A DNA stretch of 64,000 nucleotides from Sphaerolaimus hirsutus (Eukaryota > Nematoda > Chromadorea > Monhysterida > Sphaerolaimidae): positions 12,152,001-12,216,000 of the forward strand of contig OZ038456.1 of assembly GCA_964036195.1 (NCBI GenBank), in the 5' to 3' direction. Positions 11,246-60,673 of the stretch are shown piece after piece (the first letter of the stretch is position 1; each line of letters begins with the position of its first letter). Both the position numbers and the translations under genes were made by a program. A model generated the notes under the pieces. That model was not told the origin of the DNA. It did no database searches and worked only from the letters and a program-made list of their open reading frames with translations.

Positions 11246-12211
11246 CAGAGTTGGAAACACGTATTTACGTTTACCTGAAATACCCGGATATTCGGGTATT
11301 TATATTTACGTTTACGTTTACGTTTTCCAAAAATACCATTACGTTTTGTTACGTTTTCCTGACCGAAATACCCAGGTACTTGGGAAAACGTAAAAATGCC
11401 GACATTTAGTAGTTTCTTAGTGTCAGCGCCCTCGAATGGAACTGCACATTTCAACGAATTCTCTACCGATTTTGATGGTTGAGAATTTTAAATGATCAGA
11501 ATGATGAGGCGATCGCTTTTGTGCAGCAATTAGAATTATTACAAACAATACCTCAAATATTTCATACACTCCAATACATAGCCACTATGTCACAGTATAT
11601 TTCATGGGACATTTTTCCAAAATAGGCTAAACAAACAGTTATAAAAGTTGCAATACACTGAAACGGTGGCTGTAGAGCGTCCATTTAGCCATGCTGGGTT
11701 TTGAAATTTGGTAAAAGGATCCATTCGGGATATGGAAACATTTGTGTGATTTATTTATCAGATTGCACTACAAAAGGTGTAATTTTTACTCAATTTTGAT
11801 GTTTATATCAGCTGTTGATGTTGTTGTGTGTGTTAGCTTATCATTGTTGTATGTGTTAGCTTATCATTGTTGTATGTGTTAGCTTATCATTTGTTTAAGT
11901 TGTCTGACTCGATGTTGTTCATTATGGTGAAAATGTGTTGCTAAAAACATAAAAATATTGTACGGAAGTCAGCGATTGACCCCTATAAAGCTGAAAATAA
12001 TGGTATTTTTCAAAGCAAAGTGGCGATTACGTTTAAAAAATGTATAATGTATAAACATTTACTGTATAAAAAATTTACGTTTACGTTTTTTTTACGTATT
12101 CCTTGGTATTTAAAAAATACCTTACGTTTTAGTATTTATACTTTTTATTTGGAAAAGGTATTTATGTATACGTTTACGTTTTCCAAAAATACCAGTATTT
12201 GTACAACTCTG
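11246..12211. mobile_element. hAT-type MITE with TTTACG subterminal arrays
   Basis: It starts CAGAGTTGGAAA and ends TTTGTACAACTCTG. Perfect 8-bp target copies CTATGAAC lie at 11238-11245 and 12212-12219. The arrays are repeats of ACGTTTACGTTT and AAAATACC. It sits inside the 30-bp minisatellite. The same family lies at 33980-34483. Confidence 0.85.
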
Positions 12212-24112: not shown

Positions 24113-24151
24113 TGCGAGAAGTCCAGGGTTCGATCCCCTGCTCGTCCACCA
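24107..24151 (+). other. 3' half of tRNA-Ala(TGC) with CCA (primer-site relic)
   Basis: It begins exactly at the anticodon loop (TTTGCAT), then the anticodon-stem strand GCGAG, variable loop AAGTC, T-arm CAGGG-TTCGATC-CCCTG, acceptor strand CTCGTCC, discriminator A and CCA. There is no 5' half. Because CCA is not encoded in animal nuclear tRNA genes, this must have been copied from a mature tRNA. On the minus strand it sits 2 bp inside the LTR-like segment, where a retroelement primer-binding site belongs, but is 45 nt long rather than the usual 18 or so. Confidence 0.8.
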
Positions 24152-24153
24152 GT

Positions 24154-24290
24154 TGTAAACGCGAAGAGTTGTAGTTTCACGTTTATTGGGTATGTCGTAA
24201 CTCTACTGTGTATCACCAGTAGCTGAGTATTTACAATACATAAAGCAGAAAAGATCAATTTAAGTCATATCACAAATCAAGGATCTAACA
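24154..24290 (-). repeat. 137-bp LTR-like segment
   Basis: On the minus strand it starts TGTTAGATCC and ends GTTTACA, followed by AC and the primer-site relic. Its first 53 bases are repeated in opposite orientation at 22457-22509. Confidence 0.6.
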
Positions 24291-24596: not shown

Positions 24597-25227
24597 TAGG
24601 GTTAGAAAAACTCTTTTTTGAAAATCTTCTGGAAATTTTTTTTTTAAATCGCCGGGGCCAAAATTAGTCCCATTTCTCTCGAAAATCGCCTCTGAGGGTG
24701 ATAAAACACATGTAAAATGATAGGCAGTGTACAGTTATTCTTTCTGTGGTGAACTCGGCAGACTTTTTGGAAGTCATTGTTCTAAGGAATTTTTGTATGA
24801 GTGTGAATACTCAGACTTGGCACTGTTCAAGTTCTTGCGTTTCATACAAACAATATAAAATATGCGAATAAAATTTCATTGACTATTTGCAATTGTGTTT
24901 GCAGAAATTGCATGTTTTTGCCAAGAACACAATAAATTCATGTTTCCATTCATGTTTGATATAAAAATCACATAGCAAAACAATTTATACTTCCCCCAAT
25001 CATTCACAGCCTATATTACATGCTCAAAAGCACAAAGAAATGGGTGCTACACCACCAAATTCCTTGTAAAAGCCATGAAAAAGGCAACTGGTGGATTGCT
25101 TGCATGAAACTGTGTGCATGCGCGCAAATTTTTTGCATTTTACCTAGTGCATGAGTACCAAATTTTTTCCCCAGCGATATAAAAAAAAATCAGTGCAGGG
25201 GCTAAAAAAAATCGCTTGCCAACCCTA
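24597..25227. mobile_element. hAT-type MITE, TAGGGTTGGC group
   Basis: Begins TAGGGTTAGAAAAACTC and ends GCTTGCCAACCCTA. Target copies CTCAGCGG (24589-24596) and CTCGGCGG (25228-25235) differ at one base. Its core is related, in opposite orientation, to that of 52337-53021. Confidence 0.75.
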
Positions 25228-32309: not shown

Positions 32310-32742
32310 TCTGCATGTCAAAAATGGCTGTGGTAAATTGCTAGTTCAACAGAGTTGCTTACACAGCAAAGTTTGTCAGTTTTCACTTATTGCATTCACA
32401 TGTCGAAAATTGAATTATAGTTGTCCATGGTGACAATGGCGACAATGGCGACATGTCGCCATGTGGTATGGCAACATTCAAGAAGTGCTGCCATACCACA
32501 TGGCGACATTTTCCATTCAGTTTTCCACTGTTGCATTCATGTTGGGAAAAATTGTGACTTGCCGAAACCAACACACACTTTTTTCCACCTCTAAATTTTA
32601 TTTCATGCAAGATGGGAAAACTGAATGGCGACATGTCGCCATTTGAGTTTTCCCAAGCGTCACGCGGAAAACTAGTGTGTGTAGGCACAATATCAGAAAA
32701 TCTCTATAAAAAAATCAAATTAAATCTCTCTGAAAAACCCCA

Positions 32743-32936
32743 GGGGGCAGTCCCAAGCCCTGTAAAGTGTAAAGTAAAGTGTTAAATGTAAAGTCAAATG
32801 CAAAGTCAAGTGTCAATCAAAACAAAAAAGAAAAGATTTTATTACTGAACTTTGCATGACAATTGACACTTTACTTTGCATTTGACTTTACATTTGACAC
32901 TTTACTTTACACTTTACAGGGCTTGGGATTGGCACC
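32743..32936. mobile_element. CTGTAAAG-family MITE, short intact copy
   Basis: GGGGCAGTCCCAAGCCCTG at the left, CAGGGCTTGGGATTGGCACC at the right, and perfectly mirrored GTAAAGTGTAAAGTAAAG / CTTTACTTTACACTTTAC just inside. Each end carries CTGTAAAG or its inverse CTTTACAG, meaning a GT donor-like and an AG acceptor-like word at opposite ends. Confidence 0.75.
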
Positions 32937-33979
32937 TGATATAGATTGCATTTAGTTTCACATTCATATCTGTGCACGTGAAACATTAATTGCGCAGTTA
33001 TCCGGATCCATTTATCTACCTCCCAGTAGTTTTCATATGCATGGAAAAAGCTCATTCCACCAGCGGATTATACCGCATTAAGTCATGATCAGGCGCTGAG
33101 AAACACTTCAAAAGCAGCACCACTCCGCCTCATCGATGCCTACCATATTCTTTAATCGACCCTTTTTAGGCCCAGCGCTGGCTTTTGCATTACATTTGCT
33201 GCATGTCCATTCTTGCATTTAGACAGTGTTTAATCAGTAAAATATCAACACTGAAAAAGTGCCATTATAAGGGAACTTCATTTCATACCACTACAGTATT
33301 TGTTACAGTCTGAAATGTTTCATAAAAGCCAGTAAAATGTGAAATAATGCATGAAAATGACAAATAAATTGATCTAAATGTGAATACAGTGGTGTTTTCT
33401 AATGTTCAACAGTGAGAGCCCTTTCTAAACAAATTTTTACGCTTACACTTTTACACTTTCCTAGGTATTTTTAAAATACCTTACACTTTTGGTGTCCATA
33501 CTCAAAATTTGGAAAGTGTATTTACGCTTACACTTACACTTTCCAAAAATACCGGTATTTAAACAACTCTGCTTATACGGAAGGTATTTTTAAAATACGA
33601 AGGAATACGTAAAAAAAAACGTAAATGTAAAAAAGTTTATATGCATACTTTTTACCATTGTGCTTTGGAAAATAGCATTATGTTCACTTTTAGATGTTTC
33701 AATCGATGATTTCCATGCAATATCTTTATGTTTTAGCACTACATGCTCTAAATATCACCAACAATAAGTGCAGCAATCATAACAAATGATAATGTTCAAA
33801 AACACAGCCAACATAATGGGATAAACTTTACTTCACATTTTTTTATTGTATATTTTACATTTCTTTCACTAATTCTATTAGAATTTGTAGTCAGTTTAGG
33901 ACAAAATACAGTTACATTCTCTGTGCGGTATCGACTCCGGTCGATAGAGAATAGTGGCTATGTATTGGAGTGTATTTAT
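32937..33979. other. Mostly unassigned; fragment of the CAGAGTTG MITE
   Basis: 33435-33575 has TTTACGCTTACACTTTT and AAAATACCGGTATTTAAACAACTCTG, a decayed right half of the 33980-34483 family. The rest has no recognised feature. Confidence 0.45.
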
Positions 33980-34483
33980 CAGAGTTGGAAAAACGTATTT
34001 ACATTTACACGAAATACCCGGTTATTTGGGTATTTATATTTACATTTACGTTTATGTTTTCCAAAAATACAATTACGTTTTGTTACGTTTTCCTGGCACA
34101 ATTACCCGGGTACCAGAGAAAACGTAAAAATCGTATGGAAAATGCACAAAAACAGTGCATTTTTGAACTTTTTGCTGATACAATACGTACAATTTATGTT
34201 TTTGGCCAATTATCTTCTCAATTGTTTGATAAATAACATAGGTAAGCAAGAATGTGATCGTATTAGCAGAGAAATGGTTGAAATAGGAAAAACGAAAGTG
34301 TTTTCCAATGCACTTGATCATGGGTGGTGCACCTCAAAGAAATTTTTACGTTTATGTTTTTTTTACGTTTACCCGGGTATTTTAGAAGTATTTTACGTTT
34401 TCAGTATTGATACTCACAATTTCGAAAAGTTGATTACGTTTACGTTTACGTTTTCCAAAAATACCAGTATTTGTACAACTCTG
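33980..34483. mobile_element. hAT-type MITE with TTTACG arrays
   Basis: CAGAGTTGGAAAAACG ... TTTGTACAACTCTG with perfect 8-bp target copies GTATTTAT at 33972-33979 and 34484-34491. Same family as 11246-12211, about half the size. A 191-codon frame on the plus strand is a by-product of the arrays. Confidence 0.85.
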
Positions 34484-40775: not shown

Positions 40776-41679
40776 TAGTGATGGAATGGCGCCATGGCGC
40801 TGGCGCCATTTGAGGGCGCCAAAGGGCGCCGCGCCATGGCGCCATTGGCGCTTGGCGCCCTTTTTCTGTGGCGCCCTTGGCGCCTGGCGCCCACATTCTG
40901 AAAGGCGCCATGGCGCCCTTGGCGCTTGGCGCCCTTTTTCCGTGGCGCCCTTGGCGCCTGGCGCCCTGCTTTAGAAGGGCGCCAAAAAGGCGCCAGCATG
41001 GTCTCACGGTGAGTGCTGTGTAAACGAAAAAAAATGAAAAACGCATCCGTGGATGATCTAAATTCGCCAGAAAAATGGACGGAGTGGTGTGAGTGGGTGG
41101 AAATCTTTCGTCCAACGGTTCATCAGATCTGTCTGACGGATCAGAAGACAAGAATGATGGACCGTCTAACTTGCAAAATCATAAACAAACATATTTAAAT
41201 CGTTGCAATTAGGAAACATTGTTTGGAAGGTCTATTTGTAATGAATGGATTGTTGCCAAATGACAATTTCCATTGCGTTTGAATTCGTCATGTGGATTTT
41301 ATTCTTAAATTTTTTGTTGCAAGCCTTGTTTTTGTTCATTACATCATGGAGAACTCGAATTAAGAAGTGAATGCGCATACAATGGTGCTGTAGAAACATT
41401 TTTAGCACACGCATGGTGTTGTAGGCACTTTTATATCCTGGCGCCCTTGGCGCCTGGTGCCCTATTTTCCAAATGGCGCCATGGCGCCCTTGGCGCTTGG
41501 CGCCCTCTTTCCGTGGCGCCCCTGGCGCCTGGCGCCCACTTTCTGAATGGCGCCATGGCGCCCTTGGCGCCTGGCGCCATTTTTCTGTGGCGCCCTTGGC
41601 GCTTGGCGCCCACTTTCCGAATGGCGCCATGGCGCCCTTGGCGCCTGGCGCCATTTTTTCTGGCGCTTTTCCATCACTA
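40776..41679. mobile_element. hAT-type MITE with GGCGCC arrays, carrying a gag-like fragment
   Basis: TAGTGATGGAATGGCGCC at the left and the inverse ending TTTTCCATCACTA at the right, with perfect 8-bp target copies CCCACATC at 40768-40775 and 41680-41687. Both ends are dense GGCGCC / TTGGCGC arrays. The centre (41000-41430) is ordinary-composition DNA including a gag-like stretch. Loose GGCGCC fragments recur at 6065-6150, 44290-44385 and 45500-45590. Confidence 0.85.
41031..41198 (+). pseudogene. Possible Ty3/Gypsy gag fragment
   Basis: About 55 codons from ATG at 41031 to TAA, with DDLNSPEKWTEWCEWVEIFR followed by a polar helix-like stretch. The pattern W..W...FE.FR with a preceding aspartate and proline resembles the start of the animal Gypsy-type capsid region (W..W...F..FR). 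The similarity is short, so this is tentative. It lies between the two GGCGCC arrays of a hAT-type MITE, so would be captured or nested sequence. Confidence 0.35.
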
Positions 41680-46992: not shown

Positions 46993-49900
46993 GTCCGCGT
47001 TGTTTGCGACTTTGTGGGAATTGGCACTGTGCCAAACGCCCGTTTCCCAGCAGCGATATATGTATTGGGTTGATATGCAGCCGTGGTACTTTGCAAAGGG
47101 TGGCTGTAATTCAGTGACCACTTAAAGAGGCTCCTAACGTGCTACTTTTGGACTCAACTTTTCCTGCAGTCTCTGTCACGACGTCTTTCACAGGCGCGGG
47201 GCCGACCATCCATTTCCCGATACGTTGAGGCGATGTGCGAAATGCCGTACGACCTACTACTGCAGCGTCGAGTGCCAGAGAAACGACTGGCCCGACCACA
47301 GGTTGATATTTTAACACTGTTCCTCTTTGTGTAATTCGTTGTAATGACCTAAAAGAATGAAATGTGCGGCGTTGAAGAAAAAGTGGGTCCCGATTAGGGA
47401 TGGCCGAAATAAGTTTTTTTTACGCAAGGTTAAAAAAAATAAAACCCGTTTTTTTCAAAAACGGTTATATTTTAAAATAAAACCGTTTTTTTCAAAAGCT
47501 CCTAGATATGGTCATGAGTCAACATATACAGGTAAATCAGACAGCTGACTGTACTTTGTGATGTTATATATAGCCAAAGAATGGCTGTGGAGCCCTGGGA
47601 TATCATTGTAAGTAGTGATTTCTGTCAAAAATATCCGTTTTATGTTGACTTATCATCTATATTGGCTTTTATTGAACATTCGTGACTTCAAGTTAAGTAG
47701 GCTATTGACAAGTGTTTAAATTAAGTTACAATAGAAGGCTAATCTATTAGTAGTGATTTTTCACACTGTAGAAGTATATTGACTGGGTATTATCAAGGGT
47801 GGCCCACATCAGGCGCACAGCTTCAATTGGCTCCCAACACATCAATTTTGAATGAGAACTGCTCAAATTTGGTATGGGGGTAGATAAATGTACCCTATTT
47901 GTTGTGTTGAGTGCACTGTTCCACATCACAAAAATTCGTGTCAGAACATGAAGCAAAGTTTAATACGTGTTTGAGCGTGGCGCATGTCAGGCAATCATTT
48001 ACCAAATCACCAATTATTCATAAAAATAGTCCAAATTTGGCATGACAGTAGATAAATGTACCCTATTTAAATAGTATGTTAAGCACACACATAAATATCA
48101 TCATATTTTCACATTTATCACATCGTATGCAAAACAACGTCACTCCACAGGACCATCTACAATGGGACACATTCAAAAACATAAATACGAAACTTTTTCA
48201 CGTTCTGACTAGGGTGTCAAATTTCCGTTTCCGGTTTCTGTTACTGCCTTTCTGCAGGAAATTTTTTTACCTTTCCGTTTTCCATTTTCCGGCAGCGGAA
48301 ATTTTTTTACCTTATGTAAATATGAAACTCTTTCACGTTCTGACACGAAATCTTGCAATATGAAACCGCACACTTAACACAACAAATAGGGTACATTTAT
48401 TTTACCCCCATACCAAATTTGAGCGATTTTCATTCAAAATTGATGTGTTGGGGGGTTGGGGCCAATCAAAACCGTGCACCTCACGTGGGCCACCCGGTAG
48501 GGTGGCAGACGGTACGGCCTTGCGGTAAACCGTACGGTACGGTAAATTTTCTATTTTCCGGTAAACGGTACGGTACGGTAAATCCTCAATTTTGCGGTAA
48601 ACGGTACGTTACGGTAAATCTGAAAAGTGCGGTACGCGGTACAGTACGGTACGGTACGGTAAATTTTCGTTTGTCAGAAATGTATCAATGCGGGACTACA
48701 GACAACCTTTACTTCATAAATTGACACTAAATTCAATTAATCAATTTGTTAATGGACTTTAAAACACAATAACAGTGTGATGACATAGAATTTGATTACC
48801 CACAAGGCAGGGGGTCAATATATTATGCTACCCTACTTCCAACTACATATGTCACTGCAACAAATAAGCTCAAAACATTGCAGGTGATGTTTCACAACTT
48901 AAGAGTGATTTGAAGCACATGGCTTGATATTATCTTGTTTTAGTTTTAGTTATCAACACATTATACCAATCTAATGACGTACCTACAGCAATATTGTATG
49001 CAGAAGTGAAAGGGCTTCAAATCAGTGGAAACAATGTAGTCAAATTTGCGCGCTTGCGCGCAAAAAATTGCAGAACACAACATTTTAAGGTGAATTTTAA
49101 GGTGTATATTTAAGGTCAATCTGATTAAAATTTACCGCATTTTTGCGGTAAATGAGTGCGGTACGCGGTACGGTACGGTAAGTTTCCAAAAGTGCGGTAA
49201 ACAGTACGGTACGGTAAATGGTCCAAAAATGCGGTACGGTATGGTACGGTACGGTAAATTCTGCCACCCTACCACCCGGTACACTACACTCACATATCAC
49301 GGCTTATTATGAGACAATAGCATGGACACATGGAAGCTTTCACACTAATAATGATTCAAAACCAATGAAAACAACCACCAAAGGTTATGGGTATGTGAAA
49401 TTGCGCGCTTGCGCGCAGAAAAATGCGAAATACCTCGTGCTTAGTACTAAAAATTTCGGCTAAGGTTTTTTTTAAATGAAAAAAACGGTTTCGATGGTCA
49501 GTTTTATTTTCAAATAAAACGTTTTTTATTAAAAAAACGTTTGAAAAAAACCTTGGCGTCCCTTGTCCCGATTACGGTGTTTCATTTTGTTGGGAACTTT
49601 TTTCCTAGGGTTGGCGGGAGAAAAGTATCGTGGGTTGGCCGGGGATGGTTTTTTTTTCCCGAATACGTATTTTCATTCCAGCGGCTTCTTAGGGGGATGG
49701 ACCGGCCGTAAAGTAAACCCGGCCGTAAAGTAGAGGGTGCTACTTTAGTTGTGTACCTAGGAAAACGTAAAAATGAGTATAGGCGAAAGCGAGAGTCGTC
49801 GCTATCCCTACCCATCGCGAATTCTATAATTTCCAATGTTATTTTACGCTATTTTTTCAGCCGTTTATATTCGTGTGAGTGATTTTTTGCTTTTTATGCA

Positions 49901-52900
49901 CTCAAACAATGTTCTCAAGCACGTTTTCTGTACCCGCGTACTTTACCCGCGTACTTTCAAAGTACGCAAGTAAGTGAGTACCGGTATTTTTTAGGGAGGA
50001 AACGTAAACGTATTTACACAGCACTCGAGTGTACGTATTTATCGAGTAAACGTAAATACGTTTGTACAACTATGCCTTACGGCCGGATTCACTTTACGGC
50101 GGGGTTTACTTTACGGCCGAGTTCTCGCCGCTTCTCTGGGGATTCTTAGCTTTAGCCATAATGCATTTTGTTCTCAGTGAACGTGACAATTTGTTCTCAT
50201 TTTCGAGTCAAAAACTTTTCTTTCAACTGAAGCTACAGGACTTTTTTGTGAGAGGGTTCGGGTAAATAAACACCTTCCCGGTCACGTCCGGCACCCATTT
50301 TTTGATTTTACTTCTTACATCCTATCCCCAGTTCTAGGGCACCCCAGAGGCTGAAACTTGGGAGAGATATTGTCCCAACCCCCCTCTACTTCGCATGAAT
50401 TGGGGGGGTCGCGGCGACCCCCCAAATTCATGCGAAGTAGAGGGGGGTTGCGCCAATATCTCCCCCAAGTTTCAGCTTCTGGCGCGCCCCAGAACTGGAG
50501 ATAGGGTGTCACAAGTAAGATCAAAAATAGGGTGCCGGACGTGACCGGGAAGGTGTTTTTATACGAAGTACTTCAATATAAGTACAAAGATAAAATACAT
50601 ATATTTTGCAACGCCAAAAGTTGTTGAAAATAGGCAGGAAGTTAATTTGCGAAGGACAGAATGGGTAAAAAAGTACAAAATTGAGTGTAAATAGTGGAAA
50701 AATCATTAAAAATTTTCACCACATCGTAAAAAAACCGGGTGATGGGGTAGCGCGACATAGGACACTGCTGTCATTTGCAGGTCTCTTCAAACCAGGTCCG
50801 AGTGCTTGGCGCTGTGCCAGTGCCCCAGGAAGCCGGACGGCACCCGGCACATTCCGCCCGCGATCGTGCGTCTCATGAAGCGAATTTTTCCTGCGCGCAA
50901 TTTCTGGCCTGGACGAAGTGAAGGCGCCGAGCAATTTCGTGGTGGCGCACGGCGGTCGGGATAGAGTTTATTCGGATTTGGAGTCGCGTATGTTTGGATT
51001 TTTGCCAACTTGTTGCAGGGGTCGCGCGGGTCCATATTCACGTATAGTAAATCGCAGTTACACAGATGTACATAAATATTGCTGAATGTTTTGTGCGTTT
51101 GGTTACTATACTCGGCGGACATGATACTCTGCCCTCTCACTGATTTATGTCTTGTGTTGGAAGCGTGCCAATGATTATTAAATCATGCGATTTCCGTAGA
51201 AAGATGAAAAAATTCATCGATGTGAATATGCTACTGAATAACATTATAACTAGGGTTCAAACGATATGACTTTTCGATATCGATATTTGATATTCGATAT
51301 TTTTTTCTGAAACTCGATATTCGATATCGATACGATATGGAACCTCGATATCGATATTCGATATTCGATATAAAAAATGGTCGATATTCGATATTCGATA
51401 TTTCGATATTTTCGATATTCGATATTGCGATTTGCTTTTGGTATAGCAAGGCATATTTCAAGTGACATATTGTATTTTCATGTGGTTGCACGCATGGTTA
51501 ATCATCTCTTTAGTTAAATGTGAATGGTACAAGTGATTTTAACATGGTTTACATCACTCAAAAGTAGAACATGTAGAAAAAAAACATGATGAATCAATGT
51601 GTATCAGACAAATAACAATTGGTAGATATTACAGTTCATACTGATAACCTGATTGCTTAAGGGCATGTTGCAAAAAATAGAATATCAGCATTTTCTGGCT
51701 TCAAATTTAGCACTCCAACAAAAATGACATTATAAGTACTGTACTTTTACTCATCTAATACAATTCTCAGATCAGATCAAGCACATCAGATCAATCATAA
51801 ATATCTCAAAATGAAAATGATAACTTTTTTTAGGGACACAATATAGGTTCGATATATCGAAAAAATGGTCGATATTCGATATCGATATTCGATATTTTTT
51901 CAAAATTTTCGATATCGATATTCGATATTTGATATTTTTTCAAAATTTTCGATATCGATATTCGATATTCGATATTAAAAAATGGTCGATATCCGATATT
52001 CGATATTCGATACGATATATCGTTTGAACCCTAATTATAACAACAATCAATTTTGTCATCTTTTGATGAAACTCGCATGCTTTAACCATCGTTGGCACAC
52101 TTCCAGCGGGAACCACGCGTGCAAGGTGTAAAGTAACCGGAGTATATCATGAACGTATCCAAGGGGGTGGGGTGCAGCTTGGGTGTGAACAAAAATTTAT
52201 TTACGGAAAACGGAAAAAACATTTTTTCAGCTATCTGTCCCCCCAAAAATATATTTTTCAGCTAACGATTTACTATCTATATTTACCCCCGTGGGGTTCC
52301 AAATCTACAAAATCCCTGCTTTGTTGTGATTGCAGATAGGGTTGGCAAGCGATTTTTTTAAGCGATTTTTAAAAAAAAAATTTCGATTTAAAAAAAAAAT
52401 CGCAGCACCCGTACCGATTTAAAAAAAAAAATTGCTGGCTAAAAATTTTGGTACTCGAGCACTAGGTAAAATGTAAAAATTTTGCGCGCAAGCGTGCACT
52501 TTCATGCAAACAATCCATCAGTTACTTTTTTCATTGCTTTTACAACCAATTTGGGGGTGTAGTACGCATTTATGTGTGCTTTTAAGTGTGCAAGGTAGGC
52601 TGTAAATCATTTTAGGAAGTATTCATGGTTATGCTTTGTGTTGTCACATCAAACATTTATGCAAATGCATCCATGTTCACTTCCAATATGATTTATAGTT
52701 TGTTCTGAGCAAGAACATGCTTTTTCTGCAAACAAAATTGCAAATGGTCGATGAAATGTGATTCACGTCACAAATATAACAATTTAATTACTTACACTTA
52801 AAAATAACTGACTTTCAAGCTTTTCCGAAGCTCTACAGTACTTATATTAGCACAGAAAGCATAAGTGTGCACTCTCTATCAATTTATATGGCTTTTATTA

Positions 52901-55900
52901 CCCCTAGAGGCGATTTTAGTCAGAAATGGGGCTAATTTTGACCCCAGCGATTTTTATAAAAAAAAAATCGATAAAAAAAAAATCGGGGTCGTTAAAAAAA
53001 ATCGATTTTTTTCCAACCCTAATTGCAGATCTGGATGAGTTCAAGAAGCGACCGGACAAAGTTGAGGAGTTTACTACCAATCTGGCAGTGTTGCAGCAGT
53101 ACGCGCAGGGGGGGACAGTGCGCGATCCCACACGCCGGACAGCTTCTGGAGGCATATTGCAAGGTGGGTGGCAGGGGTTTATCGGGGGAGGGGGTTACCC
53201 CTTCCTCAAATCCGCCAGCTATCTATCTATCCCGGTGGCAACATTTTGGGCTACTATCCCTTGCATCATCCCCAATCGGCCAGCTATCTACCTATCTGGA
53301 GCGATTTTTGAGAAACTATACCCCAATTTTCACACAAAATCGCTATTTTCTTGTAACTTACCGTATTTCCTCAAAATACCCCCAGGTTTTTTTTTCAGAG
53401 GAGAATTTTGAGGGGGGTATTTCGAGGGGGGGGGGGATTCGAGGGGGGTTGATTATTTCGCCAGAAATTTTTTGAAATCCCAGTACTAATTCGTTGTTTC
53501 TAACGTACGCAAACGTAGAAAAATGCAACGATAATCGACAAGAAAAAGTGTTTATATACTTATATAAGTACCGGGTGGCCCACGTCAGGCGCACGGTTTT
53601 GATTGGCCCCCAACACATCAATTTTGAATGAAAACCGCTCGAATTTGTTATGAGGGTAAATAAATGTACCCCATTTGTTGTGTTAAGTGCACGGTTTCAT
53701 ATCGCAAGATTTCGTGTCAGAACTAGGCTGTCAAAAAATTTTTTTACGGAAAACGGAAAGGTAAAAAATTTTCAGCTACCGGAAAACGGAAAGGTAAAAA
53801 AATTTCAGCTGCCGGAAAATGGAAAACGGAAAGGTAAAAATTTTTCCTGCGGAAACGGAAAACGGAAACGGAAATTTGACACCCTAGTTTTCACTACCAA
53901 AAATTATTCAAGTGGCGGAATTATTATTTTGTAAAAATTTTCAAGCCCATTTCTACCAATTCATTTCACGAAACATTCAGCATTAACAAAACAACAAGTC
54001 ATTATTGACCAAATTCAACCACAAATTTATTATTCCAGTGTGTTTTTGCACACCGGATGTGACACATTTGCATTCAGTGACCAGAGGCAGCTCTTTTGCT
54101 TGACCTGACTTCATCGATTTTTTTAAGCATGTGTGGTACTTTTTGCATCAGTGGGGGGGGGGGGGGATTTTTAGAGTCGGGGAATTATTTTTTCCTCACT
54201 CGACTAACAGGGGGAACTATTCAAGTGGGGGGACTATTCGAGTAAATACGGTAATTAGATGGTATAAACACTGTTCTAACGTAACACAGTCATTGTTTTA
54301 ACGTGTGTTCTGCATTTCCTGGATAACAAACGACAGCTTTTGTGATGTACGTTCTGTTTACACTCAATTTGTGGGGGGGTATTTCGAGGGGGGTCTATTA
54401 ATTCATAGTGCCCATTCTGAGGGGGGGGGGGGTATTTCGAGGGGGGGTAATTCGAGGAAATACGGTATATAGATTTTCACCTCTAAAATCACTGGTTCGT
54501 GTGTCTAATTGTCTGTAAGTATAACATTAACTTGCAAATATTCTCACACTTCGCAGCTTTGTATCAACGGGGTGCACATTCAAAATTGTGACCTGGAACC
54601 GGTCGGCATCGGACTCTACTTGAAGTTAGCACTCGATGTTTTGCCCTAAATGAGCTATGGATTTATAGACGTTCGCAATTTGCAGTTTTTCGCGCCTGGA
54701 CCACAGCTGCGACCCCAATGCCTTCGTTGTTTTCGACTGGCGCCGGGCCCATTTGCATGCCCGTCCGGTTGGCTGCATTTGAATTTTCTTTTTTAGGCGT
54801 TTAAGTGGGCTATTTACACAGGTCCCGGCTGGGGACCGGGACCCGGCAAAAAATAATTTTTAGTCAAAAATGAATAATTGGCGTGTATGGGTTATTTGCA
54901 TGTTAATAAGGTGAATTATCACTAAATTAGCATGCACAAAATTTTTGCAAGACGGTTACACCTGCCAATGCATATTCTTTGGGCGGGTGTGTAAAATTAT
55001 TCCGATTAGTCTCAAAGTTGGCATGCGTGTACACCTTTGTTTAGTGAGTATGTACGCATTCCAAATTTTAGCTCCGGGCAGTTACTGGTTTTTATTTTAT
55101 TTATACTTTAATTTTTTCGATCACTGTATTTTTGTATAGTGATCAAAATCCTGCCGGGGACCGGGCCCCGGCAGGATTTCGATCACTATACAAAAATAGT
55201 GATCAAAATAAATTAAAGTATAAATAAAATAAAAACCGGTAACCCATACATGCCAATTATTCACTTTTGAAAAAAATTATTTTTTGCTGCCTTCCCGGTC
55301 CCCGGCCGGGACCTGTGTAAATAGCCATTTAAGTGTATATGGCGCACCACACACTGAAATTTCGCGTTCAGCGTTCGAACGTTTTTGCACGCTGAACTAC
55401 AAACGCTGAAATCAAAATCTGAAAAACGTTTTTGAAGCGTATAAATTCGGCTAGCATGCGAATTTCACTAAATATTGCAAATTCTGAATATTTTATCGCT
55501 CAAAAACGTTCGGTTCTTAAAATATCGATTTCAGCGTTTGTAAACACCTTCCCGGACAAGTTCACCACCCATTTTTTTATTTCACTTCAGATGCAATATC
55601 TCTGGCTATGGGAACCGTATAAAGCTAATATTTGGTTGGTATATAGTCCTAACGCTCCGCTACTCCGTATTAATGGGGGGAGGTGCGGCGACTCACTACA
55701 GAGTGGGTCGCCCTTCATGCAAACATTGTTTTGGCTTTGTTGGTGTCCCAAACAAGTCCACCACTCACTTGATTGGCAACACTACCAGGGCTATATATCC
55801 AGCTGTGTGGGCGATAGAAAGCTGAAATTTGGGGGATGTCTTGCAAACAACCCCCTCTCACAATTCATCAGTGGGTGGCCGCCGACGACCCACTACAGCA

Positions 55901-58900
55901 TGGGTCGCCGCATATAAAGTTGTTTGTTTTTCAAAAACAACCTAAGTCTCCCAAACAAGTTCGCCATCCGTCTGCATTATAAAAAAATGTTGTGAGAATG
56001 CACCTGATATAAAATTGAAAAAATGTAAACCCTAGTTCTGCTCATTAAAATTTTTTCAGTAGGGGACCCAACCCGTCCCATAGACAGCAGACTGAAAATT
56101 TCACTTTAAACCAATTTTTTGTTTCACACTTAAAAAGTTGGTTTACAAAGTTCACTAGGGAAGAATTTAAGGTTCAAAGTTATGTAAACAACATAACCTC
56201 AAAAATGCCTGCATAAGGAAATTTATTTGGGGTGAATGAAAAAATGTAATTTTTGTCAAATTTTGTTCCTGTGATGATGTCATTATGACACCATAATTTT
56301 CACCCCAAATAAATTTCCTTATGGAGGAATTTTAGAGATCATGTTGTTTACGTAACTTTGAACATTGGACCCTTCCCTAATGAACTTTGTAAACCAACTT
56401 TTTAAGTGTGAAACAAAAAATAGGTTTAAAGTGAAATTTTCAGCATGCTGTTTATGGGACGGGGTGGGTGCCCTACTGAAAAATTCTTAATGAGCAGAAT
56501 TAGGGTTCAAATCTGACTCAATTTTATACCAGGTATGTTCTCACAATATTTTTTATAATGCAGTTTGATGGCAAACGTGTTTGGGACGCTTGGGTTGTTT
56601 TGAAAAAAATGAACAACTGTACATGCAGCAATGCATACTGTAGTGGGTCGCTGGCAGGCAGCCCCACTGTTGTATTGTAAGGGGGTTGTTGGCAAGACAT
56701 CCCCCAAATTTCAGCGTCATACCAGCCTCACAGCTGGAGATATGACCCTCGAAGTGTAGCTAATCAAGTGGGTGGTGAACAGGGATTGGGACAGCAAAAA
56801 AGCCAAAAAAATTTGTTGCGTATAGGGCAACCCACCCTGCAGTGAGTCGCCCCATCTCCCCCCATTGAAGCAGAGTAGGGGGTGTTACAACTTTATATAT
56901 TCAAAGTTTCAGCTTTAAAACACCCCCATAGAAGGAGATATTACATCCGAAGTGAAATAAAAAATTGGGTGGTGAACTTGTCCGGGAAGGTGTTTAGTTC
57001 AGCGTGCAAAAAACGTTCGAACGCTGAACGCAAAATTTCAGTGTGCGGTGCGCCGTTGGGTTTTTTATTCGCCATTTTCCCGTTTCTTCGTTGGATAATA
57101 TCGTGATTTGTTACTTTTTGAAAATTTGGAAAGTACTAAATATCTACTATTCTACTTTACACTCTGAAACTTTACCAATAATTTGGAAACATCATTTTTG
57201 GATACGCAGGGAGTGACGCGAGTGTCTGAAGTGCGCATCAGTTACGTGGACGTGCTGCAGCGGCGCGAACCACGGCAGCGGGAACTCACGGACACCTACT
57301 TCTTCACGTGCCACTGCGCCAGGTGCAGCGACGATTTGGATGTGCGTAGTGGACCGGGATTTTTGTAGGGGTGGATTTGTAGCGATGTAGGATGTTTTGT
57401 AGCGATTTTTCCCCTTTTCTTCCTTTCTTCCTTCTATACAGTCATCCCCGGGTTATCGGGTGGCGTAAAATTTTTCAAATCTCACCCCATAAAGCGGGGA
57501 ACCCGATAACCGGGGGACGTACTATAGAAGTGCCATGGTCGCTGTGCATGACATTTCCAGAGTTTACATCATTAATACATGAACAAAAGGCTTTTTAAAT
57601 GCAATTATCGTGCAACGTGTAAAATGTACATTTATGATGGCATTTAAGACACGCTGCACGTTTGCAGGCTTGCACGCTTGGGAAATGTTTAAGTAAATGG
57701 TTCTTCAATGCTAAAATACCCGATAACAGAAGCCACTTTATATATGAAAATGCAGAATGTTCTCAAAATCCCACCCGATAACCCGGGAATGCGGGGAAAC
57801 CCTCAATCCGGGGAATTTTGTTCACGCGTGTCCCCGGTTTTGAGAATTCCACCCAGTAACACGGGGAACCCGATAACGGGGGGAACCGTTAACCCGGGGA
57901 CCACTACTTCGAAAAGCCTATATATTAAACCCCGCGACCCCCCCCCCAACCACCCCAACCCCCCGCCAAAAAATAAATAATTTTTTTCTCCAGCTATCTA
58001 TTCCCCCCGGAGGAGCGATTTACTATCTATATGAACCCCCACGGGGCTCCAAATCTACAAAACCCCTGGTAGTTGAGTGATTTCAAACACTCACTTTGTG
58101 TATCCTCTACCTACCTATTAAATATGTCTCTGTCTTTTCACAGGATGATAAATACCACCGTTTGCGGTGCTCCCATTGCAGTGAAGTTTTGCCCCCCGCG
58201 CCCGGATCTCAGAGCGAAAGTGAGTGTTTTTCGTGAAAAATATTGAGAAGTAAAAAGTGAGAAGCTACGTGATATGACAAGTAAAAAGTTGAAAACGTAA
58301 AAGTAAAAAGTTAATTTAGACGTGAGAAGTGAAGACAGTTGTTTAACTGTTTACTTGTCACTTCTTATTTTACTTTGCTTTTAACTTCTCACTTCTAAAA
58401 AGGGTTTTAAATCCTCCATTTGCGAAATTGACCCCAGAACTAGGGCTGGCCAGCGCTTTTTTTTAAAAAAACGCCGTTTTTTTCTTCAAAAAAAGCGCAA
58501 GGGTCCCAGCGCTTTTTTTTAAAAAAGAGCGCTGGCAAAATTTTTTGTACCTATGCACTAGGTATTCTGTAATTTTTTTGCGCGCAAGCGCGCAATTTCA
58601 CCATTACATTACCACTGGTGGTTGTTTTCATAGGTTTTGTGTATTTTTAGTGTCATTCTTGCATGCTTTCCTATAATAATAAGCTGTGATATGTAAGTGT
58701 AGTATATAATATCCAGCCAATGTGGTTCCACATACTTCTACAGTAGGAAACGCCAGTCTCAATGTATTAGCCTTCTTTTATAACCTAATTTTAGCACCAT
58801 TTCATGCCTAACTTCTTTTGAACTCACAAACATTTGACAAATAGCAATTTACATAACGAGTCAACATAAAAAGTGGATTTTTTTGCATAAAACCCCACCT

Positions 58901-60673
58901 GTATTACTATCCCATGGCTCCACAGTCATTCTATGACTATATATCATCACAAGTACTGCCACTTGTTTGACTTAGAACCATATTTGGGAGCTTTCTAGGA
59001 AATGTCTTGACATTTTTTGAAAAAAAGCGAAAAAAGTGCGTTTTTTTACAAAAGAGCGCTTTTTTTTTAAAAAGCGGGGCTGTTGAAAAAAAGCGCTTTT
59101 TTCCATCCCTACCCAGAACCCCCGAGGAGTCAAAACTCTCGCGATAGCTGAAGCTTTTTATGGTTGGTCAGCGTCTTTGGGCCCACACAATTGACACCAA
59201 AATGAGTGTTAACTGTATTTTGGTTAATTATGTGATTTCAACTATTCTGTGTGAAAGAGGGCATAAGTAAACACCTTCCCGGTCACGTCCGGCACCCATT
59301 TTTTTATTTTACTTCTCACATCCTATCCCCAGTTCTAGGGCACCCCAGAGGCTGAAACTTGGGGGAGATATTGGCGCAACCCCCCTCTACTTCGCATGAA
59401 TTGGGGGGGGGGGATCGCTGCGACCCCTCTCAGGGTGGGTCGCCCTAAGTGCAAATTTTTTTTGGCTTTTTTGGTGTCCCACAGCAGGTCCGGCACCCGC
59501 TGATTTCTGAGCTGTGGGAGGAGTATAAATCTAAAATTTTGGGGATGTGTTACCAACACCACTCCCCTACTGTACACTATTCAAAAATGTGAGATTTATG
59601 TGAAAAATTTCTCAAAAATTGGCTTATTCTCTAAAAAAACACCACTCCCCAATAGATGGATGACAAAAAATTAACTTTTTGGAACTTTTTTATTAGACAC
59701 TTGAAGAGATGGTTTACAATACTTTAAAGGGAAGGGTTTGATGTTTAAAGTTACGTAAAGAACCATACCTCTAAAATGCCTGCATTGCAAAATTTACTTG
59801 GGGGGAATTTCAAAGTGTAAATTTTGTAAATTTTTGTTCCTGCAATGATGTCATTATGATGTCATAAAATTCGCCCTAAGCAAATTTTGTAATGCAGGCA
59901 TTTTAGAGGTATGGTTCTTTACAAAACTTTAAACATCAAACCGTTCCCTTTAAAGTATCATAAACCATCTCTTCAAGTGTCTAATAAAAAAGTTCCAAAA
60001 AGTGATTTTTTTGTCATCCATCTATTGTGGAGTGGTGTTTTTTTAGAGAATAAGCGAATTTTTGAGAAATTTTTCACGTTTATTTCACATTATTGAATAG
60101 TGTATAGTAGGGGAGTGGTGTAAGTAACACATCTTTAAAATTTTAGATTTATACCCCTCCCACAGCTCAGAAATCAGCGGGTGCCGTACCTGCTGTGGGA
60201 CACCAAAAAAGCCGAAAAAATGTTTGCACTTAGGGCGACCCATGCTGAGAGGGGTCGCCGCGACCCCCCAAATTCGTGCGAAGTAGAGGGGGGTTGCGCC
60301 AATATCTCCCCCAAGTTTCAGCCTCTGGGGTGCCCTAGAACTGGGGATAGGATGTGAGAAGTAAAATCAAAAAATGGGTGCCGGACGTGACCGGGAAGGT
60401 GTTTAATTTTATATCGTGACATTTAATTTTCATTGCTTCTGGTCGGTGTGATACTTTAAATTTTGTTGTGTTAATTATATGACATTCAGTTCACATTCAT
60501 TTGCGATGTCAACTAGTACTTGTGCGCTCTATATCACTCGTTATTGTGTCAACACACAGTTGCGTGCGTCAAGTGCAACCGCGAAACTACTCGTGCGGAC
60601 AAAATCCATCTGGCGCGTCAAATCGAGAATTTCGTCAATTTGGCCAATCAAATTTTCGAGCGCATGGACTCAG
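46901..60673 (+). CDS. SMYD-family SET and MYND domain protein, 3' incomplete
   Basis: A protein of the SMYD family (lysine methyltransferases of nucleus and cytosol that use S-adenosylmethionine; the SET domain is split by a MYND zinc finger). Nine exons: 46901-46992, 47170-47301, 50796-50917, 53029-53163, 54557-54624, 54686-54767, 57210-57341, 58144-58219 and 60560-60673. All introns are GT-AG and the phases agree except after a G7 run in exon 4, where one base must be skipped. This gives about 317 residues. Order: start of SET, MYND (CSRC...CAKC...CSVEC...H...C), I-SET helices, SET core (NGVHIQN, GIGLY, DHSCDPN, ISYVDVL), post-SET zinc cysteines (CHCARC), then two more CxxC pairs. Family members have 430-490 residues, so the C-terminal helical part lies beyond the last donor and probably outside the window. 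The two extra CxxC pairs recall SMYD4/SmydA-like proteins, so the subfamily is left open. Confidence 0.85.
47170..47301 (+). CDS. SMYD exon 2: MYND zinc finger
   Basis: Acceptor TTTTCCTGCAG. Encodes GLCHDVFHRRG..., then RRCAKCRTTYYCSVECQRND and WPDH, the hallmark C-x2-C...YCS..CQ..DW..H. The loop between the first and second cysteine pairs (about 23 residues) is longer than the usual 9-12 and itself contains C and H. Donor GTTGAT. Confidence 0.9.
47797..49280. mobile_element. GGGTGGCCCAC palindromic MITE nested in 47396-49565
   Basis: GGGTGGCCCACATCAGGCGC at the left and GTGGGCCACCC at the right of its arms (right arm ends near 48497 before a further insertion). Shares CAACACATCAATTTTGAATG with 53575-53720. 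It also holds a scrap of TAGGGTGTCAAATTTCCG at 48211. Confidence 0.65.
48498..49271. mobile_element. hAT-type MITE with TTACGG arrays (innermost)
   Basis: TAGGGTGGCAGACGGTACGG ... TTCTGCCACCCTA with perfect 8-bp target copies CCACCCGG at 48490-48497 and 49272-49279. Arrays of CGGTACGGTAAA at both ends; core contains TTGCGCGCTTGCGCGCAA. Confidence 0.85.
49574..50268. repeat. Intronic remnant repeats
   Basis: 49690-50130 contains GGCCGTAAAGTA / TACTTTACGGCC words at both sides and a CAGAGTTG-family MITE scrap (ACGTATTTGTACAACT). No exon seen. Confidence 0.45.
50269..50557. mobile_element. AACACC-type palindrome, 289 bp
   Basis: AACACCTTCCCGGTCACGTC and its inverse. The arms pair almost without interruption through GGCGACCCCC near 50410. 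Same family as 59270-60403, reduced to the arms. Confidence 0.85.
50796..50917 (+). CDS. SMYD exon 3: last MYND cysteine and linker helices
   Basis: Begins SECLALCQCP; the C completes H-x3-C with exon 2. Then PPAIVRLMKRIFPARNFWPG. A second acceptor 15 bp upstream (ends 50780) is also in frame and would add five residues but spoil the H-x3-C spacing. Donor GTGAAG at 50918. Confidence 0.8.
51109..52144. mobile_element. 246-bp TA-flanked MITE split by a hAT-type MITE
   Basis: TACTCGGCGGACATGATACT at the left and ACCGGAGTA at the right with TA either side; second copy of the element at 22449-24534. Confidence 0.7.
51251..52033. mobile_element. hAT-type MITE with CGATATT arrays
   Basis: TAGGGTTCAAACGATAT and its inverse, perfect 8-bp target copies ATTATAAC at 51243-51250 and 52034-52041. 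Arrays of TCGATATTCGATAT occupy 51270-51430 and 51845-52020. Confidence 0.9.
52337..53021. mobile_element. hAT-type MITE with ATCGATTTTTT arrays at a SMYD splice acceptor
   Basis: TAGGGTTGGCAAGCG and the inverse of TAGGGTTGGAAAAAAA. Perfect 8-bp target copies ATTGCAGA at 52329-52336 and 53022-53029. The right copy supplies the TTGCAG acceptor and first base of SMYD exon 4; the left copy is the ancestral acceptor now stranded 693 bp upstream. Confidence 0.92.
53029..53163 (+). CDS. SMYD exon 4: I-SET helices, with frameshifting G7 run
   Basis: Reads NLDEFKKRPDKVEEF then LAVLQQYAQGG, matching the helical segment before the SET core. After the G7 at about 53108-53114 the homologous reading continues in another frame (AIPHAGQLLEAYCK), which also matches the phase of exon 5. 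The acceptor is at the right target copy of an inserted hAT-type MITE. Donor GTGGGT. Confidence 0.8.
53164..54556. repeat. SMYD intron 4: MITE remnants
   Basis: 53160-53340 carries CAGCTATCTA...ATCCCC-type intron repeats also at 52215-52310 and 57985-58075. 53360 begins a C/G-rich MITE (CCGTATTTCCTCAAAATA), with GGGTGGCCCAC (53575) and TTTCCG-array (53728-53886) pieces nested, and a right end at about 54252. Another right-half scrap ends at 54473. Confidence 0.55.
54557..54624 (+). CDS. SMYD exon 5: SET core start
   Basis: Encodes LCINGVHIQNCDLEPVGIGLY; this corresponds to the CN.F.I.......VG.GLY strand pair. Phase 0 in, phase 2 out. Donor GTTAGC. Confidence 0.85.
54686..54767 (+). CDS. SMYD exon 6: DHSCDPN cofactor motif
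   Basis: FSRLDHSCDPNAFVVFDW then RRAHLHARP. The invariant NHS(C) motif reads DHSC here. A 61-bp intron separates it from exon 5, the only compact intron in this part of the gene. Confidence 0.9.
54808..55327. mobile_element. hAT-type MITE with CCGGGACC arrays
   Basis: GGCTATTTACACAGGTCCCG and its inverse, perfect 8-bp target copies TTTAAGTG at 54800-54807 and 55328-55335. The interior folds on TAAATAAAATAAAAACC-like and GATCACTATACAAAAATA arms. Confidence 0.85.
55341..57054. mobile_element. GGCGCACC element with nested AACACC MITE
   Basis: GGCGCACCACACACTGAAAT and its inverse, followed inward by GCGTTCAGCGTTCGAACG on both sides. Target duplication not evident. The nested element is 55553-56994. 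Confidence 0.75.
55553..56994. mobile_element. AACACC-type TA-flanked foldback MITE
   Basis: AACACCTTCCCGGACAAGTT and its inverse with TA at 55551-55552 and 56995-56996. Fold extends over the whole 1.4 kb. A partial relative is at about 60950-61230. Confidence 0.85.
57210..57341 (+). CDS. SMYD exon 7: catalytic tyrosine region and post-SET
   Basis: GVTRVSEVRISYVDVLQRRE then ELTDTYFFTCHCARCSDDLD. ISY.D carries the conserved tyrosine; C-x-C-x2-C is the post-SET zinc motif. Donor GTGCGT. Confidence 0.9.
57439..57906. mobile_element. pogo/Tigger-like MITE
   Basis: CAGTCATCCCCGGGTTATCG at the left preceded by TA, CCGTTAACCCGGGGACCACT at the right. The CAGT..TCCCCGGGTTA terminus is typical of pogo/Tigger ends. 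GGGGAACCCGATAAC recurs internally. Confidence 0.65.
58144..58219 (+). CDS. SMYD exon 8: CxxC pair
   Basis: DDKYHRLRCSHCSEVLPPAP. Could pair with the next CxxC to form a zinc ribbon. Donor GTGAGT, the strongest in the gene. Confidence 0.8.
58441..59111. mobile_element. hAT-type MITE with AGCGCTTTTTT arrays
   Basis: TAGGGCTGGCCAGCGC and the inverse of TAGGGATGGAAAAAAG, perfect 8-bp target copies CCCAGAAC at 58433-58440 and 59112-59119. It sits in a decayed GAGAAGTGAG MITE (58230-58430). Confidence 0.9.
59270..60403. mobile_element. AACACC-type TA-flanked foldback MITE
   Basis: AACACCTTCCCGGTCACGTC and inverse, TA at 59268-59269 and 60404-60405; arms pair through TGGTTTACAATACTTTAAAG. Located in the intron before SMYD exon 9. 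Confidence 0.85.
60560..60673 (+). CDS. SMYD exon 9: second CxxC and start of C-terminal helices
   Basis: IACVKCNRETTRADKIHLAR then QIENFVNLANQIFERMDS, an amphipathic helix. Donor GTACGT at 60674; no further exon recognised before 64000. Confidence 0.8.

What the first reader, a model, noticed from the sequence alone, without database searches (positions are those of the whole stretch)
47396..59111. hAT-type MITEs with one conserved core but wholly different subterminal arrays
Elements 47396-49565, 48498-49271, 52337-53021, 58441-59111 and 24597-25227 all have TAGGG-type ends and 8-bp target duplications. They share core words such as the GCGCGC(A)AGCGCGC palindrome beside CACTAGGTA-like sequence, and 'tgtggagcc.tggga' in two of them. 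Yet the arrays next to the termini are different: AACCGTTTT, CGGTA, AATCGATTTT, AAGCGCTTTT. In several the motif is a small palindrome inside A/T runs. Known hAT transposases bind subterminal motifs, so this looks like families that diversified by replacing the whole binding array while keeping the core, possibly tracking different transposases. Observation of shared cores and arrays is direct; the mechanism is inference.
Basis: partly seen in the sequence, partly recalled or inferred. Interest (0 to 1): 0.9.

Follow-up and report, generated by a model that had tools for sequence, protein, structure and literature searches.

The report
Jumping-gene ends rewritten site by site
In one unidentified genome, related families of hAT-type jumping genes keep the same end layout, but the short DNA word repeated along both ends differs at almost every repeat, which looks like a natural record of a DNA-recognition code being rewritten.

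Summary
The elements are real: TAGGG ends, 8-bp target duplications, cores related far beyond shuffles. The arrays are not "wholly different". In three core-related families (52337, 58441, 47395) they are one scaffold: same site order and orientation, near-equal spacing, shared spacer words. The repeated word differs: CGATTT, CGCTTT, or a looser (C/G)GTTTT. From the first to the second, 9 of 11 half-sites are switched, 0 kept, 2 misaligned. Sites 1 and 2 read A/A in 27 and C/C in 70 of the 100 listed of 805 genome hits. Core clades match words, so swapping of whole arrays is not supported. A second case lies in CAGAGTTG-ended hATs with transposase remnants: AACGTA became AGTGTA at 12 of 13 sites; a third class, AGCGTA, is the one-base intermediate (38/31/22 pure, 2 mixed, 7 mutant, of 100 listed of 3,472). 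Most likely the arrays are transposase-binding sites that followed stepwise specificity shifts. Shown: in-register switching. Inferred: binding, selection, direction. No transposase of the TAGGG(A/T)TGG families and no DNA-binding domain was found, so co-variation with the protein is untested.

The parts
52337..53021 (+). E523: non-autonomous hAT-like element, word CGATTT; duplication ATTGCAGA
   Evidence: 28 genome copies examined, 23 with perfect 8-bp duplication
52337..52458 (+). E523 left subterminal array (complete copies have sites near 14, 28, 48, 68, 82, 102 from the end, order F F F R F R; the window copy scores 5 of the 6)
52947..53021 (-). E523 right subterminal array (sites P F P, spacer AACGACCCCG)
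58441..59111 (+). E584: same scaffold, word CGCTTT; duplication CCCAGAAC
   Evidence: 30 genome loci, 21 with perfect duplication
58441..58554 (+). E584 left subterminal array (window copy scores 4 of the 6 sites)
59037..59111 (-). E584 right subterminal array (spacer CAACAGCCCCG; family consensus CAACGGCCCCG)
47395..49564 (-). E47: same scaffold, word (C/G)GTTTT or CCGTTTT; duplication GTCCCGAT; interrupted by two nested repeats
47797..48497 (.). inverted-repeat element nested in E47, itself holding a TTTCCG-array segment from 48211
48498..49271 (-). E485: TAGGG-ended element nested in E47, word CGGTA; core related to E584 and E47 around the palindrome only
24597..25227 (-). E24: diverged relative of E523 (67% over 545 bp), same word, several sites lost
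51251..52033 (.). E512: TAGGGTTCAAACGATA ends, ATATCGA array; matches a hAT element with a dimer domain (L039 1086-2474)
11246..12211 (.). CAGAGTTG-ended element, AACGTA 13 hits, AGTGTA 2, duplication CTATGAAC
33980..34483 (.). CAGAGTTG-ended element, AACGTA 11 hits, AGTGTA 0, duplication GTATTTAT
33440..33571 (-). right end of a CAGAGTTG-ended element with AGTGTA and AGCGTA words (8 and 2 hits over 32701-33571); left end not found
40776..41679 (.). TAGTGATGG-ended element with GGCGCC array, duplication CCCACATC

Best explanation
These are non-autonomous hAT-like elements (MITEs) whose ends carry about ten short CG-centred words, most of them beside A/T runs, on a conserved scaffold. Shown: between related families the scaffold is kept while the word differs at almost every alignable site, in both ends and both orientations (CGATTT against CGCTTT; AACGTA against AGTGTA, with AGCGTA as a third class; more loosely (C/G)GTTTT), and the large classes are nearly pure for one word at the sites sampled. 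Inferred: the words are binding sites of the transposase DNA-binding domain; its specificity shifted by one base at a time; arrays followed by point substitution because matching copies were the ones mobilised, and bursts from a well-matched copy made each class pure. The result is a set of separate address codes on one chassis. Direction of change, and the transposase partner of the TAGGG(A/T)TGG families, are unknown.
For: In-register switching: E523 to E584, 9 of 11 half-sites switched, 0 kept, 2 misaligned; variable columns mismatched 11 of 11 against 32 of 186 elsewhere. L032 to L112, 12 of 13 switched, 0 kept, 1 other; variable columns 25 of 26 against 34 of 258. Site order, orientation and spacing agree for one complete copy per family (chosen for completeness): 6 of 6 sites coincide, against 32 of 100,000 random layouts. 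Purity: of 100 listed of 805 hits, C/C 70, A/A 27, mixed or mutant 3 (only sites 1 and 2, and only GCGN words can match). Of 100 listed of 3,472, 38, 31 and 22 pure, 2 mixed between classes, 7 one-off mutants (two sites 8 nt apart). Linked end variant: TAGGGT with GCGA 20, TAGGGA with GCGC 59, TAGGGT with GCGC 0, TAGGGA with GCGA 0, of 100 listed of 1,566. Word not tied to overall distance: the GGCA-type elements L098, L100 and L101 are 77-80% identical to the E584 consensus and 74-76% to the E47 consensus, yet carry the E584 word. Transposase link: dimer-piece clades (drawn by eye from the alignment) sort with words nearby, CGGAAA 11 of 11 loci, ATATCG 4 of 4, TTCGAA 7 of 7 (some loci are duplicates of each other), and dimer pieces lie inside duplication-bounded elements. 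In print: hAT-type DNA-binding domains usually prefer CGG or CGC words, some AT-rich ones, and four hAT-encoded ones match their own subterminal regions (PMC8097297); Hermes BED needs a 4-base word plus an AT-rich flank (PMC10368747).
Against: Read in the other direction, E584 to E523 gives 7 of 10 switched, 1 kept, 2 misaligned, and L112 to L032 12 of 14 with 2 other: the outer half AAGCG of the second site is common to both. A second word, CGGGTA (5 hits in both L032 and L112), was not switched, and the C-lineage elements L110 and L113 carry mixed words (ACGCGTA 8, AACGTA 4, AGTGTA 1-2), so not every array is pure. No transposase with TAGGG(A/T)TGGC ends was found. The zf-BED search gave 8 hits, 7 of them on one stretch of contig C1, so no DNA-binding domain could be set against a word. 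The E47 class is less uniform. Copies are related, so thousands of copies stand for perhaps four or five switch events. Motif columns were defined after seeing the alignments. Binding itself is not shown here.
Confidence: 0.65

Rival explanations
1. Whole-array replacement: cores acquired new ends from other elements by recombination or template switching.
For: Arrays of E48498 and E51251 look unrelated to the rest; coral CMITEs show conserved interiors with divergent ends (PMC2872659).
Against: Spacer words, site order, orientation and spacing are shared between E523, E584 and E47, and core clades match words. E523 and E584 differ more in the interior, where only the left 200 bp or so aligned locally, than in the arrays.
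Confidence: 0.07
2. Within-element homogenisation (slippage, unit duplication or short-tract gene conversion) spread a variant word along the array without transposase-driven selection.
For: Some copies show tandem duplication of whole units (L066, L069), so arrays do expand locally.
Against: Position-specific spacers (e.g. AACG(G/A)CCCCG, CTGGC) survive between families, so conversion tracts would have to be only a few bases long, act in both orientations and reach both ends.
Confidence: 0.15
3. Neutral or mutational drift (e.g. CpG deamination) changed the words.
For: AGCGTA to AGTGTA is formally a C-to-T change at a CpG.
Against: CGA/CGC and AAC/AGC are not CpG deamination. The other deamination product of AGCGTA, AGCATA, is absent at site 2 of the 100 listed rows (site 1 could not show it because the pattern fixes that base). 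Array CpGs in 28 E523 copies show 0 to 3 TG or CA changes each. Variable columns changed 11 of 11 and 25 of 26 against 13-17% elsewhere.
Confidence: 0.05
4. Words changed to escape a host or domesticated DNA-binding repressor rather than to follow the transposase.
For: hAT-derived DNA-binding proteins are repeatedly domesticated and bind such words (PMC8097297); a cluster of zf-BED hits exists on C1.
Against: Escape alone does not explain why nearly every site becomes the SAME new word; a matching activator is still needed. No repressor was looked for beyond the zf-BED search.
Confidence: 0.08

Closest known systems
hAT superfamily non-autonomous elements / MITEs (e.g. Ds of maize, mar of Drosophila; both seen only as search listings with the start of the abstract)
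   Same: hAT origin, short TIRs and subterminal repeats (general traits partly recalled)
   Different: here several families share one array scaffold with a different word at nearly all sites
CGG-binding proteins and their parent hATs (PMC8097297; parts 1 and 2 of 3 of the text read)
   Same: related hAT-type DNA-binding domains have different words, usually with CGG or CGC; those of four hAT proteins match their own subterminal regions
   Different: that work looks at the proteins; here the DNA side is seen, with sites switched in register within one genome
Coral CMITEs (PMC2872659; abstract and one discussion section read)
   Same: MITE families with related interiors and differing ends
   Different: piggyBac-type ends; here the ends are homologous and mainly the repeated word differs
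Hermes and Herves subterminal binding sites (PMC10368747 abstract and one section; PMC3143072 abstract)
   Same: short words bound by the transposase near the ends, for Hermes next to AT-rich DNA; the Herves authors state that bound regions differ between hATs and so ensure specificity
   Different: single elements, no series of related families with stepwise words

Membership tests
hAT superfamily (TAGGG(A/T)TGG families E523, E584, E47) | 8-bp target-site duplication | tested here: met
   23 of 28 E523 copies and 21 of 30 E584 loci (L061-L063 share one duplication and may be one insertion copied with its surroundings) perfect; window elements
hAT superfamily (TAGGG(A/T)TGG families E523, E584, E47) | short TIR of the YARNG type (formula recalled) | tested here: met
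   TAGGG..CCCTA ends
hAT superfamily (TAGGG(A/T)TGG families E523, E584, E47) | mobilised by, or derived from, an element coding a hAT transposase | tested here: inconclusive
   none of 28 PF05699 loci showed these ends around the dimer piece, nor did the 10 loci fetched from 94 protein hits
hAT superfamily (CAGAGTTG families) | hAT dimerisation domain inside a duplication-bounded element with the same ends | tested here: met
   L032, L035; L110, L111, L112, L113, L114 (these five found by similarity to a PF05699-positive piece)
hAT superfamily (TAGGGTTCAAACGATA, window 51251) | hAT dimerisation domain inside a duplication-bounded element with the same ends | tested here: met
   L039 1086-2474 holds the dimer match; duplication 7 of 8 bases; window element aligns to it in pieces of 78-94% identity
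MITE | short, non-coding, high copy number, similar length | tested here: met
   copies mostly 630-730 bp; 1,566 end-pattern hits genome-wide; no frame of 200 aa or more in the window elements
CMITE-like 'conserved core, replaced ends' | ends not homologous while interior is | tested here: not met
   arrays of E523, E584, E47 homologous in register
Subterminal repeats as transposase-binding sites | sequence-specific binding by the family's transposase | not testable with these tools
   no intact transposase or DNA-binding domain recovered

The most novel reading that the evidence does not exclude
hAT lineages in one genome repeatedly rewrite their subterminal recognition alphabet, one base step at a time and across a fixed scaffold of ten or so sites, as a Red Queen process: an autonomous element whose transposase shifts specificity escapes titration by thousands of MITEs, and MITE arrays then re-match the new word. 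The AACGTA, AGCGTA and AGTGTA classes would be preserved steps of one such walk, and together with CGATTT, CGCTTT and (C/G)GTTTT they would form a natural selection experiment on a zinc-finger recognition code.
Probability: 0.25. Interest if true: 0.9.

Novelty: new variant of a known kind. Interest (0 to 1): 0.72.

Why it matters
How a transposase and a multi-site array can change specificity together, when the sites must follow the protein, is an open problem as far as I know. Here several near-pure end states and an apparent one-base intermediate are preserved on one scaffold, with 805 and 3,472 pattern matches genome-wide in the two element groups. That makes the order of steps, the tolerance for mixed arrays and the protein changes directly testable, and offers a natural set of potentially orthogonal transposon ends. 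The nine literature searches made here listed no paper that I recognised as describing in-register switching of an array; subscription literature was not covered, and most listed papers were seen only as titles and the start of abstracts.

Tried and rejected
Core pattern search (CACTAGGTA plus GCGCGC, 3 mismatches) was sent 11 times, never answered, and dropped. The zf-BED search did not reach the transposases. An early pairing of the C-lineage piece L031 with a GCGCCA array was wrong: L031 is 97.8% identical to the L110 element over 499 bp on its other side, and the GCGCCA end seems to belong to something else. The GCGCGC palindrome as proof of shared descent was rejected because it also occurs outside these elements. 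The unit-permutation test is weak: 2 to 5 pieces, so the observed order only ties the best; at the right ends it has little or no power (256, 96 and 92 of 500 permutations as high). Exact site strings vary between copies: FFFRFR in 9 of 24 anchored E523 copies (4 of 28 lacked the anchor) and 2 of 17 E584 copies (13 of 30 loci dropped as truncated or without matching ends); the others had lost or gained sites. For E47, 10 loci were fetched; of the 13 loci given to, 3 had no ends found and several others had wrong ends, so one search used 4 loci plus the window copy and five plus the window copy. The tree used 6 of the 12 loci and 4 of the 10. L004 and L007 hold single copies with AAACGTTT words; too few to use (L004 is one row of the tree). 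Right ends of E47 copies give no consistent site string. A first run of the E584 script stopped with an error part way and was redone. Identities from global alignments run higher than local ones (E47/E584 70-71% for the window copies), so I compare only like with like.

Full report
WHAT WAS CHECKED. The window lies at G000:C9:12152001-12216000 of a 348-Mb, 762-contig genome. The host was not identified. The outer element is 47395-49564 with duplication GTCCCGAT. Core similarity beats all of 300 dinucleotide shuffles per pair for E584/E47, E523/E24, E584/E523, E584/E24, E47/E523 and E47/E24. E48498 is linked to E584 and E47 through the region of a GCGCGC palindrome, which also occurs outside these elements at four places in the loci then held. 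E51251 shows no shared core.

FAMILIES IN THE GENOME. E523: 1,267 first-look candidates, 40 scored; 28 copies examined, 23 with perfect duplications. Their ends hold 7 to 14 CGATTT hits each, 0 or 1 CGCTTT or CGTTTT, and no CGGTTT. E584: 5,322 candidates, 40 scored, 30 loci fetched; the 21 with perfect duplications hold 6 to 12 CGCTTT, 0 to 4 CGTTTT (partly from the composite third site ACGCCGCTTTT) and 0 or 1 CGATTT or CGGTTT. E47: 3,100 candidates, 40 scored, 10 fetched; sites read AAGGTTTT, AACGTTTT or AACCGTTTT, a looser class. A degenerate end pattern gives 1,566 hits (3 for the pattern read backwards). Of the 100 listed, TAGGGT goes with GCGA (20) and TAGGGA with GCGC (59) or AGGG/AGGT (15); 6 are other forms; TAGGGT/GCGC and TAGGGA/GCGA are 0.

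ONE SCAFFOLD, DIFFERENT WORDS. From the left end, complete copies have sites near positions 14, 28, 48, 68, 82 and 102 in the order F F F R F R (third site P in E47), followed by the same run into the core: GGC, A/T run, GTA(C), GCACTAGGTA, and then the GCGCGC palindrome. Many copies have lost sites. One complete copy per family coincides at 6 of 6 sites in every pair of families; random layouts reach that against E523 in 32 of 100,000. At the right end the E523 consensus reads TAGGGTTGGAAAAAAATCGATTTTTTTTAACGACCCCGATTTT and the E584 consensus TAGGGATGGAAAAAAGCGCTTTTTTTCAACGGCCCCGCTTTT. Going from E523 to E584, 9 of 11 half-sites are switched, none kept and 2 are misaligned; variable columns differ 11 of 11, other array columns 32 of 186 (Fisher p 0.00016 left, 5.7e-5 right; columns defined after inspection). 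Starting from E584 instead, 7 of 10 are switched, 1 kept (the outer half AAGCG of the second site, common to both words) and 2 misaligned. A two-site pattern has 805 hits (control 0); of 100 listed, 70 are C/C, 27 A/A and 3 mixed or mutant. A midpoint-rooted tree of 30 core rows keeps the 23 C-word rows (one locus counted twice) and the 6 GG-word rows in separate clades, supports 0.99 and 0.94. So there is no sign that arrays were exchanged between cores. GGCA-type elements L098, L100 and L101 are 77-80% identical to the E584 consensus and 74-76% to the E47 consensus, and carry the E584 word.

A SECOND CASE WITH TRANSPOSASE PIECES. The PF05699 search gave 28 loci. Dimer pieces, grouped by eye, sort with the array word nearby: CGGAAA 11 of 11, ATATCG 4 of 4, TTCGAA 7 of 7, AACGTA 2 of 3; the remaining 3 loci are L051 and L055 without an array and L031, corrected below. 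L032 and L035 are CAGAGTTG-ended elements with perfect duplications around the dimer piece. A protein search from L031 gave 94 hits; of 10 loci fetched, L110, L111, L113 and L114 and, separately, L112 are duplication-bounded CAGAGTTG elements around the piece; the other 5 gave no such element. L032 has 14 AACGTA and 0 AGTGTA, L112 has 0 and 16; their ends align in register; both keep 5 CGGGTA. 12 of 13 sites are switched, none kept, 1 other; variable columns differ 25 of 26, others 34 of 258 (p 5.7e-10 and 1.4e-9). Their dimer pieces share 38 of 43 aligned residues from KLLSV on (my count from the alignment). L110 and L113 are mixed: 8 ACGCGTA, 4 AACGTA, 1 and 2 AGTGTA. An end pattern has 3,472 hits (control 0). 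Of 100 listed, both sites read AACGTA 38, AGCGTA 31, AGTGTA 22; 2 mix AGTGTA with AGCGTA and 7 are one-off mutants. AGCGTA is the one-base step between the other two. The window itself holds two elements mainly or wholly of AACGTA (11246, 33980) and an end with AGTGTA and a few AGCGTA (33571). The earlier pairing of L031 with GCGCCA was an error.

HOW IT MOST LIKELY WORKS. From the literature: hAT transposases bind short subterminal words; Hermes BED needs a 4-base word plus an AT-rich flank (PMC10368747, section read); hAT-type DNA-binding domains usually prefer CGG or CGC words, some AT-rich ones, and four hAT-encoded ones match their own subterminal regions (PMC8097297). The TAGGG arrays here have that form: a CG-centred word beside an A/T run. 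The inference is that transposase specificity moved by single-base steps, that arrays followed site by site because matching copies were mobilised, and that amplification from well-matched copies made classes nearly pure. Homogenisation within the array is the main rival. It is disfavoured because position-specific spacers survive, but local unit duplications do exist (L066, L069). Mutational decay does not fit most of the changes. Escape from MITE titration is an attractive driver but untested.

LIMITS. The thousands of copies represent perhaps four or five switch events. Listed hits are the first by contig order, all or nearly all on contig C1, not random. The E47 class is fuzzy, and some CAGAGTTG arrays are mixed. 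No transposase was found for the TAGGG(A/T)TGG families and no DNA-binding domain for any lineage, so the protein side is missing. Novelty rests on nine searches of an open-access library.

Noticed in passing
window 50262-50564: Near-perfect hairpin: arms of 151 nt, 89% complementary, 1 nt apart.
   Followed up: no
window 40776-41679: TAGTGATGG-ended element with long GGCGCC arrays and duplication CCCACATC; a related element lies at L037 38-1314.
   Followed up: partly
L006 2191, L007 2722, L008 2864, L029 652: GCGCGC(A/T)(A/T)GCGCGC palindrome beside an A/T run, outside the MITEs, in several cases close to G- or C-rich repeats; perhaps a widespread regulatory word or part of another repeat.
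   Followed up: partly
G000, about 60 of the 94 hits: Many copies keep only a frame of about 32 aa matching the last 27-30 residues of the L031 piece; L113 and L114 are examples and are CAGAGTTG elements, so a MITE family seems to retain the end of a transposase gene.
   Followed up: partly
window 15944-16321: Reading frame that looks like the end of a PIF/Harbinger nuclease (judged by eye, no family search).
   Followed up: no
window 22484-24202 and 61960-63127: Retroelement-like integrase and reverse-transcriptase frames (judged by eye, no family search).
   Followed up: no
G000:C1:7466186-7680097: Seven of the eight zf-BED hits found lie on this one stretch, possibly host BED genes.
   Followed up: no
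window near 48211, 53887, 5095 and 30220: TAGGGTGTCAA ends followed by TTTCCG/CGGAAA arrays; the same ends and words bound hAT-dimer elements such as L029 and L030.
   Followed up: partly
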